From IMG/VR virus record IMGVR_UViG_3300023242_001029, positions 1-22,564 of that record: a stretch of 22,564 nt of DNA, one strand, 5' to 3'. The notes under the pieces were generated by a model. It did no database searches. It was not told where the DNA came from and saw only the letters and a program-made list of their open reading frames with translations. How positions within the stretch are numbered: position 1 is the stretch's first letter; each line of letters begins with the position of its first letter. This document shows, in pieces, positions 1 to 3,908 of this stretch. The translations under genes were made by a program, and so were the position numbers. This stretch comes from a virus.

Positions 1-37
1 TAAAAAGAAAAGTAAGGAATTTATTAAAAAAAGATTT

Positions 38-583
38 ATGGATGTATTAAAATTTAAAGAGTGGGTATATAATCAACATGATGTTGTTTGTAATCAAAAA
101 TATAATAAGACTTTACCTTATTCATTCCATTTAGATTTAGTAGCTACCAATACTATGAGATTTAAACACTTACTTGGTGTTAATAACCTAAATGTTGCTT
201 TAATGGGTGCATTAGGTCATGATTTAATTGAGGATGCTAGAGTTACTTATAATGATATTAAGCAATTGGATTTAAGATCAGAAGGTCATATGCCAATTTC
301 AGAAAGAGTAGCTGATGTAATTTATGCATGTACTGAATTACGAGGTAGAAATAGAGGTGAACGTCATGGAGGAGAATATATTCAAGGTTTAAAAGATAAT
401 CGTTTAGGTTTATATGTGAAACTTTGTGATATTGGAGCAAATGTTGGATTTGGTGTTTTAACTAATTCCTCAATGGTAAAAAAATATAGGGAAGAATTTC
501 CCAAATTAAAAGAAAAACTTTATAGAGATGAGTTTGATGAATTATTCGTCTATATTGAAAAATTATTAACTTTAAATAAATAA
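38..583 (+). CDS. Small alarmone hydrolase-like HD-domain protein (SpoT/MESH1-type)
   Basis: This is probably a (p)ppGpp-type 3'-pyrophosphohydrolase of the SpoT/MESH1 class. The full HD signature is visible in 181 aa: H31, the block GHDLIED (H61, D62, E65, D66), and D131 with N135 in KLCDIGAN. In SpoT the equivalents are H53, H77-D78, E81-D82, D144 and N148; the HDxxED spacing and the four-residue step from Asp to Asn are the same here. There is no synthetase domain, so it would only hydrolyse. The TROVE gene starts 6 bases after its stop, so the two are probably co-transcribed. The reading frame is open leftward from the ATG at 38 to the window edge, so the true start could lie further upstream; no Shine-Dalgarno helps decide. 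A hydrolase for another nucleotide remains possible. Confidence 0.75.
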   Translation: MDVLKFKEWVYNQHDVVCNQKYNKTLPYSFHLDLVATNTMRFKHLLGVNNLNVALMGALGHDLIEDARVTYNDIKQLDLRSEGHMPISERVADVIYACTELRGRNRGERHGGEYIQGLKDNRLGLYVKLCDIGANVGFGVLTNSSMVKKYREEFPKLKEKLYRDEFDELFVYIEKLLTLNK

Positions 584-589
584 TAGATT

Positions 590-2146
590 ATGTCAAAGTA
601 CAATCAAACAAAAACACCAAGAAAGCCGGATGCGGTTTCTTATGAGGGTGGAGCATCATATAAGTATGGTGAAAAAGAAGAATTAATTTCAATTCTGGTC
701 ACAGGATTTGGGAATACATTCTATGAAAAATTAGGAGAAAGAGAAACTAGACTTCAAAATCTAATCGTTTCTTTAGGTAAAAAAGATCCTGAATTCGTAG
801 CAAAAGCTTTAGTTTATGCTAGAAGCGTTGTTGGACAAAGAAGTGCAACTCAATTTGGAGCTGTAGCATTTGCTTCATCATTATCAGGTTCTCCATTAGG
901 TAGAGCGTTTTTCGGTAAGAGAAACAGAAAAGGTAATTTTGGAGGTATTGTTCATCGTTTAGATGATATGCTTGAGATTGTTGCTTGTTATTTCCATTTC
1001 AATCCAGGTAAACCTTTACCTAACGCGATGAAGAGAGGATTTAAGGATGCTCTTGAAAATGCTGATACTTACGAGCTAGCTAAGTACCAAGGGAAGAACA
1101 AAAATGTATCTCTAGTAGATGTTATTAATTTAGTTCACCCAAGACCTTCTAGTGAAATGGAAGGAACTTTTAAAGACCTTATGAATGGTAATTTAAAGCA
1201 GTTTAATACTGTTGAAGATAAAAATACTACAGCAGGTCAAGAAGTTGCTGCTCAAGTTAAAGCAGGTGAAATTTCAGAAGACGAAGCTAAAGTTAAAGTT
1301 TCTCAAATGAAGGAAGATAACTATATAGAGTTAATTGAAACCGGTAAAATTGGATATTTAGCATTACTACGTAACCTACGTAATATGTTAAAAGATTCAT
1401 CATCTCCAGATTTAATTCTTGCTGCTAGTGCTTTATTAGTGAATAAGGAAAAAATTAAAGGTTCTTTAGTATTTCCTCACCAAATTGATTTAGCGTTAGA
1501 AGTACTGTTAAGTGAGAAGATTGATGTACCTAGGTACTTACTTCAAGCTTTAAATACAGCTTATGAGTTAGCAATTCCAAACTTAACAGAGTTATTTCCA
1601 AGTGGAAGAACTGCTATTATATTTGATACATCATCATCAATGAATGGGTCTTATGGTGGTATGATTAAATTACTAAACGGTAAGCAAGGTAGTACCTCAG
1701 CTCTTAAAAAAGCATCATTAGTAGCAGCTACATTAGCTAAAGGTATTGATGCAGATGTTTTCCATTTTGCTTCTACTTGTGAGAAAATTAATTTTAATCC
1801 ACTTGATAGTGTAAATACTATGAAGAATCTGTTTATATCAAAAGAAGGTAGAGTTGGTCATGGTACTAATTTTGGTCCAATATTTGAAACATTAAAATCA
1901 AATGGAGGATATGATAGAGTATTTATTATTAGTGATCTACAAGGTAATTCTTATATTAGACCTCAAGATTACACTCATATGCATGTTTATTCAATTGATA
2001 TAACAGGTTATGGTACGACTATGTTCAAACCATTTAACAAATTATACCAATTATTTGGATATACTTCAGAGCTTTATGAGCTAATCAAAAAGGTAGAAGT
2101 TGATCCTAGGGTGTTAATGAATGAAATTGATGCCATTGTAATTTAA
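590..2146 (+). CDS. Ro60/Rsr-like TROVE-domain RNA-binding protein with vWA domain
   Basis: This 518-aa protein has the layout of Ro60 (Rsr in bacteria), a ring-shaped protein that binds Y RNAs and misfolded or decaying RNAs. The N-terminal HEAT-like TROVE domain (about 15-335) includes two blocks I recognise as typical of the family, LVHPRP near 181-186 and LLRNLRNM near 259-266. The C-terminal vWA domain (about 340-515) has a complete-looking MIDAS: D346, S348 and S350 in FDTSSSM, T426 in GHGTNFGP and D449 in FIISDL. The length matches the bacterial and animal proteins, and I see no truncation or frameshift. It follows an alarmone-hydrolase-like gene by 6 bases and ends just before a strong terminator. 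No Y RNA is visible next to it, so its RNA partner may be a host RNA or encoded elsewhere. The family assignment is firm; its role in a phage is unknown. Confidence 0.93.
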   Translation: MSKYNQTKTPRKPDAVSYEGGASYKYGEKEELISILVTGFGNTFYEKLGERETRLQNLIVSLGKKDPEFVAKALVYARSVVGQRSATQFGAVAFASSLSGSPLGRAFFGKRNRKGNFGGIVHRLDDMLEIVACYFHFNPGKPLPNAMKRGFKDALENADTYELAKYQGKNKNVSLVDVINLVHPRPSSEMEGTFKDLMNGNLKQFNTVEDKNTTAGQEVAAQVKAGEISEDEAKVKVSQMKEDNYIELIETGKIGYLALLRNLRNMLKDSSSPDLILAASALLVNKEKIKGSLVFPHQIDLALEVLLSEKIDVPRYLLQALNTAYELAIPNLTELFPSGRTAIIFDTSSSMNGSYGGMIKLLNGKQGSTSALKKASLVAATLAKGIDADVFHFASTCEKINFNPLDSVNTMKNLFISKEGRVGHGTNFGPIFETLKSNGGYDRVFIISDLQGNSYIRPQDYTHMHVYSIDITGYGTTMFKPFNKLYQLFGYTSELYELIKKVEVDPRVLMNEIDAIVI

Positions 2147-2149
2147 ATT

Positions 2150-2174
2150 AAGCCGCCTAGTGCGGCTTTTTTTT
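2150..2174 (+). terminator. Intrinsic terminator after the TROVE gene
   Basis: A perfect 7-bp inverted repeat (AAGCCGC at 2150-2156, GCGGCTT at 2162-2168) with a 5-base CTAGT loop runs into eight T residues (2167-2174). The GC-rich stem stands out in this AT-rich region. It lies four bases after the TROVE stop codon and probably ends the hydrolase-TROVE transcript. Confidence 0.92.
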
Positions 2175-2175
2175 A

Positions 2176-2183
2176 TATTTATA
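2176..2183 (+). promoter_or_regulatory. Candidate AT-rich promoter element TATTTATA
   Basis: TATTTATA lies between the terminator and the next start codon, 23 bases upstream of the ATG at 2207. The same octamer occurs in the gaps before 5005 and 8248. Its position directly after a terminator makes a promoter plausible, but the motif also arises easily in AT-rich DNA. Confidence 0.3.
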
Positions 2184-2792: not shown

Positions 2793-3086
2793 TTGGAAAA
2801 ACAAATCACAATTTACACTTTAAAAAATTGCCCAATTTGTCAATTCTTAAAAGGAGAACTTGAAGGAAGAAAAAGGGAATTTAAAGAAATAAGGATAGAA
2901 GATAATAATGAAATAGGGGATGTTCTGGAAGAAAAATTTAAAACAATAACCTATCCAATTTTCCAAATTTACGAGAAAGGTAAAATACTTACTTTTCTTC
3001 GTGAAACAGACTTGGAGTCCCCAAATAACGTCATTATATTTGACATAAATAATATACCAAATATATTAAATCAATATGAGATATAA
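2793..3086 (+). CDS. Glutaredoxin-like thiol-disulfide oxidoreductase
   Basis: This is a 97-aa thioredoxin-fold protein of glutaredoxin size. The redox motif C13-P-I-C16 follows a first beta strand (ITIYTLKN), and the cis-proline loop appears as ITYPIFQIYE near residues 52-61. In T4-type phages such proteins supply electrons to the phage ribonucleotide reductase; whether one is present cannot be seen in this window. The start is TTG: a stop lies in frame at 2775-2777 and no ATG or GTG occurs between it and the CPxC motif. The C-terminal part (after about 70) is less typical of the family. Its last bases overlap the next small gene by 11 bases. Confidence 0.85.
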   Translation: MEKQITIYTLKNCPICQFLKGELEGRKREFKEIRIEDNNEIGDVLEEKFKTITYPIFQIYEKGKILTFLRETDLESPNNVIIFDINNIPNILNQYEI

Positions 3087-3251: not shown

Positions 3252-3908
3252 ATGACTAATCTAACAGCAGAACAAATTCAAGAAAATTGGAATATTTTCA
3301 TCCAAAACATAGAAGACTATATAACTGAAGACAGAAAATTACAATTAAAAGATTTCTATGAATCACTTCAGGAACGTTTAATAGTTTATCCAGCCTCTAA
3401 CCAATTAAAATATCATAATTGTATGCCAGGTGGTTATGTTGATCATGTTAATAGAGTTGTTAAAGCATCATTATATGTTTTTAAATTATGGGGGTTAATG
3501 GGAGCTAAAACTGATAATTATACTCAGGAAGAATTAGTATTCTCAGCAATTAATCATGATTTAGGTAAAATTGGAGATACTAATCACGAAGCGTATTTAC
3601 CATCAGATGATGCTTGGAGAAAGAAGAATTTAGGGGAAATGTATACATTTAATACTGAATTACATTTTATGCAGGTTCCTGATAGATCAATATTCTTACT
3701 TCAAGAAGCAGGAATTCCAATAACAAGAAACGAATTTATAGCAATTAAAACACATGATGGTTTATATGATCAGGCCAATGAGGCTTATTTAAAATCATAC
3801 ACACCAGAAACTAAACCACGAACTAATTTACCTTATATTCTACATCAGGCTGACATGATGGCAGCTAGAATAGAAGCAGAAGGTCAAATTCTAAAAGACC
3901 TTATTTAA
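3252..3908 (+). CDS. YhaM-like HD-domain phosphohydrolase
   Basis: This 218-aa protein has an HD-superfamily core: H55 and the block MPGGYVDHVNRV (H65), then INHDLGKIGD (H102, D103, K106), H138, THDGLYD (H168) and HQADMMAARIE (D201). The PGG-x-x-x-H block, the HDxGK motif and the C-terminal A-D-x-x-A resemble the HD domain of the 3'-5' exoribonuclease YhaM, but the OB-fold RNA-binding domain of YhaM is absent. A metal-dependent nuclease or nucleotide phosphohydrolase is likely; the substrate is not visible. Unlike the first HD gene it has no HDxxED motif, so an alarmone hydrolase is unlikely. It starts two bases after the 57-aa gene and ends two bases before the next gene. Confidence 0.75.
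   Translation: MTNLTAEQIQENWNIFIQNIEDYITEDRKLQLKDFYESLQERLIVYPASNQLKYHNCMPGGYVDHVNRVVKASLYVFKLWGLMGAKTDNYTQEELVFSAINHDLGKIGDTNHEAYLPSDDAWRKKNLGEMYTFNTELHFMQVPDRSIFLLQEAGIPITRNEFIAIKTHDGLYDQANEAYLKSYTPETKPRTNLPYILHQADMMAARIEAEGQILKDLI

What the first reader, a model, noticed from the sequence alone, without database searches (positions are those of the whole stretch)
38..2174. Alarmone-hydrolase-like gene paired with Ro60 in one terminated phage unit
An HD protein with the full SpoT-type residue set (H31, HDxxED, D131/N135) lies 6 bases before a Ro60/TROVE gene, and a strong terminator follows. Small alarmone hydrolases can neutralise toxic alarmone synthetases used in phage defence; one carried by Salmonella phage SSU5 has been described. 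Ro60 in bacteria works in RNA decay and stress. A shared operon suggests a joint takeover or counter-defence function, which I have not seen described. The pairing itself is observed; the function is inference.
Basis: partly seen in the sequence, partly recalled or inferred. Interest (0 to 1): 0.75.

Follow-up and report, generated by a model that had tools for sequence, protein, structure and literature searches.

The report
Phage alarmone-hydrolase-like gene paired with Ro60
A virus of (probably) Flavobacteria carries, back to back and ended by one terminator, an enzyme gene shaped like small alarmone hydrolases and a gene for a Ro60-like RNA-binding protein; the same pair recurs in four other phage lineages next to tRNA genes, which suggests, but does not prove, a joint job in keeping tRNAs usable during infection.

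Summary
In detail: HD gene 38-583, 6-nt gap, TROVE/Ro60 gene 590-2146, strong terminator 2150-2176. The HD model (pLDDT 94.6) matches small alarmone hydrolases, MESH1 and SpoT above every other HD protein. The neighbour has a Ro60 fold with an intact MIDAS.

The pairing is real but not general. HD directly upstream of TROVE on the same strand recurs in four other phage lineages (gaps -14, 19, 21, 384 nt). Most phages with either gene lack the other. Trees show HD beside two distant TROVE clades (~30% identity), so the arrangement arose twice or the TROVE was swapped.

The other pairs and the window's nearest TROVE relatives sit by phage tRNA genes, often large arrays (tRNA within 500 nt in 24/88 TROVE loci, 0/60 HD-only loci). 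The window's contig ends before that region.

Best reading: a phage cargo unit for tRNA upkeep, the HD enzyme removing 3'-pyrophosphate from tRNA CCA ends or alarmones, Ro60 handling tRNA-like RNAs. The chemistry is untested. Both parts were separately predicted in jumbo phages (PMC7824862); the conserved pair appears unreported.

The parts
38..583 (+). HD hydrolase gene, 181 aa, small-alarmone-hydrolase-like (PHROG 990)
128..130 (+). codon of H31 (first metal-site histidine)
   Evidence: H in 45 of 46 sequences, one gap
218..235 (+). H61-D62-L-I-E65-D66 motif (HDxxED)
   Evidence: H61, D62, E65, D66 in 46 of 46
419..442 (+). K128-L-C-D131-I-G-A-N135 motif (KLxDxxxN)
   Evidence: K128, D131, N135 in 46 of 46
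584..589 (+). 6-nt gap between HD stop and TROVE ATG; no room for a separate terminator
590..2146 (+). TROVE/Ro60 gene, 518 aa (PF05731, PHROG 850)
1625..1639 (+). MIDAS core D346-x-S348-x-S350 of the vWA domain (with T426 at 1865-1867 and D449 at 1934-1936)
   Evidence: invariant in 30 TROVE sequences
2150..2176 (+). intrinsic terminator AAGCCGC-CTAGT-GCGGCTT + T8 closing the unit

Best explanation
A two-gene cargo unit of a tailed phage related to Flavobacterium Immutovirus. Shown: the unit's anatomy, the SAH-like predicted fold and metal-site residues of the HD protein, the Ro60 fold of its partner, recurrence of the HD-TROVE tandem in five lineages, and the placement of the other tandems and of the nearest TROVE relatives at phage tRNA genes or arrays. 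Inferred: the two proteins serve upkeep of the tRNA pool during infection. In this model the HD enzyme removes 3'-pyrophosphate groups, most likely from the 3'-terminal adenosine of tRNA-CCA ends modified by host toxSAS/CapRel-type defences and possibly from (p)ppApp/(p)ppGpp, while the Ro60-like protein binds tRNA-like, damaged or misfolded small RNAs. Graded confidence: HD is a 3'-pyrophosphohydrolase of the SAH kind about 0.8; the pair acts in one pathway about 0.55; that pathway is tRNA-centred about 0.45.
For: HD profile finds SpoT 7qpr E=7.5e-11, P. aeruginosa SAH 6yvc E=2.7e-10, MESH1 3nqw 4.7e-10; structure model pLDDT 94.6, first 21 VIA rows are all SAH/MESH1/RSH (Z 18.9 to 12.7) before the first other HD protein at 12.4; hhalign to SSU5_099, taken here as the toxSAS-neutralising SAH PaSpo, Prob 94.9, E=4.7e-8. 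Tandems in L189/L015, L192, L195, L199 and the window, with terminator-like hairpins after TROVE. HD beside two TROVE clades with discordant trees. tRNA within 500 nt of TROVE in 24/88 dereplicated TROVE loci against 0/60 HD-only loci (Fisher 1.2e-6); many window-type TROVE genes sit in or just behind arrays of up to 25 tRNAs. In the window's own phage group the slot upstream of the conserved gene 3252-3908 holds tRNA genes in 21 of 34 contigs. PaSpo removes the tRNA-CCA pyrophosphate made by FaRel2 (PMC11559606); PaSAH, the closest structural match, is called (p)ppApp-specific (PMC12691689), and the tRNA modification is likewise an adenosine 3'-pyrophosphate. Bacterial Rsr is encoded with Y RNAs in a tRNA-damage-responsive RNA repair operon (PMC7790460).
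Against: Most phages with one gene lack the other: strong TROVE in 4/26 and 2/42 HD records, HD in 6/30 and 2/48 TROVE records. Among about 29 dereplicated relatives in the window's own TROVE clade none has this HD directly upstream; the nearest is 1.3 kb downstream in L240. tRNA genes are seen near the other tandems but not in the window itself, which starts at the HD gene. No Y RNA found. No biochemical data.
Confidence: 0.45

Rival explanations
1. The HD enzyme degrades free alarmones ((p)ppGpp or (p)ppApp) to blunt the host stringent response or nucleotide-based immunity; the TROVE neighbour does unrelated RNA work.
For: SAH/SpoT fold and catalytic residues. Most members of the HD family are found without TROVE. 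'HD-alarmone PDease' of jumbo phages has been predicted to target alarmone (PMC7824862).
Against: Recurrent HD-TROVE tandem beside tRNA genes; Arg of the MESH1/Rel QxR motif is absent, as in PaSAH, described as (p)ppApp-specific (PMC12691689), which speaks against ppGpp in particular.
Confidence: 0.3
2. Neutral neighbours: both genes are mobile cargo in the same tRNA-array slot, and mosaic recombination has put them side by side without a shared function.
For: The slot upstream of the HD2 gene is highly variable; discordant trees show swapping; HD and TROVE often lie apart or 1-5 kb from each other.
Against: Five tandems, always HD first, same strand, four of five with gaps of at most 21 nt, in largely different gene neighbourhoods; even counted as only two independent events among 15 lineages the rough chance is 0.0016 at 1 in 250 genes (ignores hot spots).
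Confidence: 0.22
3. The HD enzyme acts on another 3'- or 2'-phosphorylated nucleotide, such as NADPH or PAPS/PAP, as seen bound in MESH1 structures.
For: MESH1-NADPH and MESH1-PAPS structures rank among the best matches; residues around the presumed base pocket differ from Rel.
Against: No consistent link with redox or sulfur genes at the tandem loci; the shared context is tRNA genes.
Confidence: 0.08

Closest known systems
PaSpo, small alarmone hydrolase of Salmonella phage SSU5 (taken here to be gene SSU5_099)
   Same: Phage-encoded SAH-type HD protein; motifs align, hhalign Prob 94.9; PaSpo reverses tRNA pyrophosphorylation by FaRel2 (PMC11559606)
   Different: Distant in sequence; its annotated neighbours include no TROVE gene or tRNA array; it has QKR before the PY motif, this family has N-x-x-Y
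Pseudomonas aeruginosa SAH (6yvc/6z3n), MESH1, C. glutamicum RelH
   Same: Same predicted fold, Z 18.9, 18.3 and 17.9, and the same HDxxED / KLxDxxxN metal site; PaSAH likewise lacks the QxR arginine
   Different: About 20% identity; cellular enzymes; substrate of the phage family untested
'HD-alarmone PDease' of jumbo phages (Iyer et al. 2021, PMC7824862)
   Same: Same general kind, predicted to counter alarmone signals; Tenacibaculum jumbo phages carry members of this HD family
   Different: The passages read mention no HD-TROVE pairing or tRNA-array context
Phage Ro60 proteins (Thermus phage phiLo 9l5y; Ro-like proteins of actinophages and crAss-like phages)
   Same: Same family and fold
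   Different: About 25-30% identity; none of the named-phage TROVE loci inspected has an SAH-like gene directly beside it
Bacterial rsr-yrlBA-rtcBA RNA repair operon
   Same: Ro60 protein encoded with RNA-end-processing enzymes and linked to damaged tRNA (PMC7790460)
   Different: Partner here is an HD pyrophosphohydrolase-like protein, not RtcB/RtcA; no Y RNA found
TROVE genes in archaeal tRNA gene clusters (PMC6333295)
   Same: TROVE gene inside tRNA clusters (20 of 29 clusters)
   Different: Archaeal genomes; no HD partner mentioned in the passage read

Membership tests
Small alarmone hydrolase (RSH hydrolase domain) | HDxxED plus upstream H and KLxDxxxN metal/catalytic residues | tested here: met
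   H31, H61-D62, E65-D66, D131, N135; all but H31 in 46/46, H31 in 45 with one gap
Small alarmone hydrolase (RSH hydrolase domain) | SAH/MESH1 fold closer than to other HD phosphohydrolases | tested here: met
   VIA Z 18.9-12.7 for the first 21 rows, all SAH/MESH1/RSH; next HD protein 12.4; Foldseek top hits agree
Small alarmone hydrolase (RSH hydrolase domain) | Matches curated family models above cut-off | tested here: inconclusive
   Window protein hits no meaningful Pfam family; 9 of 16 relatives hit TIGR00691 spoT_relA, best 4e-11, and 7 of 16 hit HD_4 weakly
Small alarmone hydrolase (RSH hydrolase domain) | Arg of the QxR motif before PYxxH (MESH1/Rel, base side) | tested here: not met
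   Position carries Y/K in this family; also absent in P. aeruginosa SAH, so not a strict SAH requirement
Small alarmone hydrolase (RSH hydrolase domain) | Mn-dependent hydrolysis of (p)ppGpp/(p)ppApp | not testable with these tools
   needs purified protein
TROVE/Ro60 | TROVE domain by curated model | tested here: met
   PF05731 47.3 bits against cut-off 23
TROVE/Ro60 | HEAT-ring plus vWA fold of Ro60/Rsr | tested here: met
   Foldseek: 9kop, 9l5y, 2nvo, human and other Ro60 entries are the top 13; model pLDDT 83.5, pTM 0.66, so domain placement is unsure
TROVE/Ro60 | MIDAS DxSxS...T...D in vWA | tested here: met
   D346, S348, S350, T426, D449 invariant in 30 sequences
TROVE/Ro60 | Partner Y RNA | tested here: inconclusive
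   No Y-RNA-type match at gathering threshold in the window or 7 related loci; upstream part of the window's locus is missing
rsr-rtcBA RNA repair operon | RtcB/RtcA next to Ro60 | tested here: inconclusive
   The genes beside TROVE in the window gave no ligase or cyclase match; upstream side not seen, and rtcB/rtcA were not searched for by profile

The most novel reading that the evidence does not exclude
A phage tRNA-maintenance module: phage tRNA arrays are accompanied by a Ro60 protein and, in some lineages, a tRNA-CCA 3'-pyrophosphatase, which together undo toxSAS-type attack on tRNA; phage Ro60 would then be a tRNA or tRNA-like RNA quality-control factor tied to tRNA arrays.
Probability: 0.27. 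Interest if true: 0.75.

Novelty: new variant of a known kind. Interest (0 to 1): 0.48.

Why it matters
If the pair works on tRNA, it gives phage Ro60, whose role is unknown, a concrete testable function, and it joins two known phage strategies: carrying tRNAs and reversing tRNA-targeting toxins. It would also name a set of candidate anti-toxSAS enzymes, many apparently from Bacteroidota phages.

Tried and rejected
Single-sequence scans of IMG/VR found no relatives. A first alignment scan suggested the adjacency was limited to one lineage; a closer HD alignment found three more, so the early view was dropped. The named-phage TROVE loci inspected have no adjacent HD gene. The second HD protein in the window (3252-3908) is not related to the first by hhalign, so it is not a duplicate. 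Sigma-70-like promoter matches are no more frequent than in shuffles and are ignored. A scan with distant TROVEs failed for lack of conserved stretches. No Y RNA by Rfam.

Full report
WHAT IS THERE. The window is a 22,564-base virus record with no longer assembly held. On the + strand an HD gene (38-583, 181 aa) is followed after 6 nt by a TROVE gene (590-2146, 518 aa) and a strong intrinsic terminator (2150-2176; -11.6 kcal/mol, z -3.06). The contig begins 37 nt before the HD gene, so the start of the transcription unit is missing. Downstream come a glutaredoxin, a second unrelated HD protein (3252-3908), a weak sigma-region-2-like protein and baseplate genes. The second HD protein is 51% and a baseplate wedge protein 47% identical to those of Flavobacterium phage immuto. 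Immuto has the same gene order there, but its annotation at this place lists no TROVE, SAH-like gene or tRNA.

THE HD PROTEIN. Alone it hits no meaningful Pfam family but PHROG 990. A 16-member profile finds SpoT, P. aeruginosa SAH, MESH1 and Rel in the PDB (best 7.5e-11), and 9 of 16 members hit the RelA/SpoT model TIGR00691. A 46-sequence alignment gave a model with pLDDT 94.6. Its best structural matches are P. aeruginosa SAH (Z 18.9), MESH1 (18.3), C. glutamicum RelH (17.9), L. levettii SAH (17.7) and SpoT (15.8); the first HD protein outside the RSH group is at 12.4. H61, D62, E65, D66, G103, R106, K128, D131, N135 and E153 are invariant in the 46 sequences, and H31 is present in 45 with one gap. 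The arginine of the QxR motif of MESH1 and Rel is absent; the family has N-x-x-Y. P. aeruginosa SAH also lacks that arginine and is described as (p)ppApp-specific (PMC12691689). So an SAH-type 3'-pyrophosphohydrolase is likely, with the base preference open.

THE TROVE PROTEIN. PF05731, PHROG 850, sequence similarity to phage phiLo Ro60 (E=1.6e-19), and a model whose top 13 Foldseek hits are Ro60/Rsr structures. The MIDAS residues are intact.

IS THE PAIRING CONSERVED. Named phages with TROVE that were inspected have no adjacent HD gene. In IMG/VR, an HD gene directly upstream of TROVE on the same strand occurs in L189 (same phage as L015; L016 is a near copy; overlap 14 nt), L195 (21 nt), L199 (19 nt) and L192 (384 nt, with a small ORF between) besides the window (6 nt). 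Hairpins that look like terminators follow TROVE in these loci by eye (only the window's was folded). Looser neighbours: L240 1.3 kb, L087/L089 2 kb, L237/L246 about 5 kb. In most records only one gene is present. The pairing is thus recurrent but not general.

HISTORY. The TROVE proteins of L189, L192, L195 and L199 are 71-82% identical to each other and about 30% to the window's, whereas the window's HD is closest to L189's (57%). In the TROVE tree the window lies in a supported clade of 30 rows and the others in a separate clade; in the HD tree the window and L015 are sisters (99/94). Hence HD has sat in front of two different TROVE types, by two origins or by replacement of the TROVE gene. 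The former would favour functional coupling more strongly; the data do not decide. A rough binomial figure treats it as two events among 15 lineages (0.0016) and ignores insertion hot spots.

SURROUNDINGS. In L189, L192, L195 and L199 tRNA genes lie 5' of the tandem; L015, the first locus fetched for that phage, holds 14 of them. The window's nearest TROVE relatives (54-65%) without HD are mostly in or just behind tRNA groups of up to 25 genes, in several with the last tRNA starting about 170-180 nt before the TROVE start. After removing near-duplicates a tRNA lies within 500 nt of TROVE in 24 of 88 loci against 0 of 60 loci around HD genes without TROVE (Fisher 1.2e-6; loci are related, so this p is optimistic). 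Of 80 contigs of the window's own phage group, 21 of the 34 with enough upstream sequence carry tRNA genes in the slot upstream of the conserved HD2 gene; TROVE is seen there in L273, and in the earlier loci L102-L105, L109, L111. It is therefore likely, but not seen, that a tRNA group lies upstream of window base 1.

HOW IT MOST LIKELY WORKS. Phage SAH PaSpo removes the pyrophosphate that the toxSAS FaRel2 puts on tRNA 3'-CCA ends (PMC11559606). That modification sits on adenosine, like the pyrophosphate of (p)ppApp. Bacterial Ro60 (Rsr) is encoded with Y RNAs and RtcB/RtcA in an operon that responds to damaged tRNA (PMC7790460). An SAH-like enzyme plus Ro60 beside phage tRNA genes therefore fits a tRNA-upkeep and counter-defence unit. 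Steps shown: genes, predicted folds, residues, tandem recurrence, tRNA context of relatives. Steps inferred: substrate, RNA targets, joint action.

NOVELTY. Iyer et al. 2021 (PMC7824862) already predicted HD-alarmone phosphodiesterases as counter-nucleotide factors and TROVE as RNA-repair factors in jumbo phages. Morgado and Vicente 2019 found TROVE in 20 of 29 archaeal tRNA clusters (PMC6333295). The searches made found no report of the HD-TROVE pair or of TROVE with phage tRNA arrays, within an open-licence library only.

Noticed in passing
L101-L115, L207-L238 and others: Phage TROVE genes close to the window's lie in or just behind large phage tRNA arrays; 24 of 88 dereplicated TROVE loci have a tRNA within 500 nt, 0 of 60 control loci.
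   Followed up: yes
L015:479-674: Match to Rfam tmRNA_permuted (60 bits, cut-off 47) in a phage tRNA array; several TROVE loci also carry tmRNA calls by ARAGORN.
   Followed up: no
L015, L115, L117, L235, L242, L244, L248 and others: tRNAs with a CUA anticodon (called tRNA-Pyl) occur in 19 TROVE loci but only 2 of 107 other loci (near-duplicates not removed); possible amber-suppressor tRNAs.
   Followed up: no
L210:8196-8615: A different RSH-like HD protein lies 617 nt downstream of a TROVE gene within a tRNA array, perhaps a second, independent SAH-TROVE association.
   Followed up: partly
window 3252-3908: Second HD protein (HDLGK type), unrelated to the first; part of a conserved block with o98, a sigma-like protein and baseplate genes in many IMG/VR contigs.
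   Followed up: partly
L181 (G036:38512-39051): HD-family gene read through one in-frame TGA; error, decay or recoding not resolved.
   Followed up: no
window 30-40 and 584-592; L189, L199 junctions: Short A/T-rich motif ending in AGATT(T)ATG before several HD and TROVE starts, possibly a phage-specific initiation signal.
   Followed up: no
window 2793-3086: Glutaredoxin-like ORF with a TTG start; a relative lies at the same place in L189.
   Followed up: no
G002, G010, G013, G015, G020, G062: Some HD-bearing phages also carry about 480-aa proteins that match only the vWA end of the TROVE profile (E about 1e-7 to 1e-9); perhaps divergent TROVE-like proteins.
   Followed up: no
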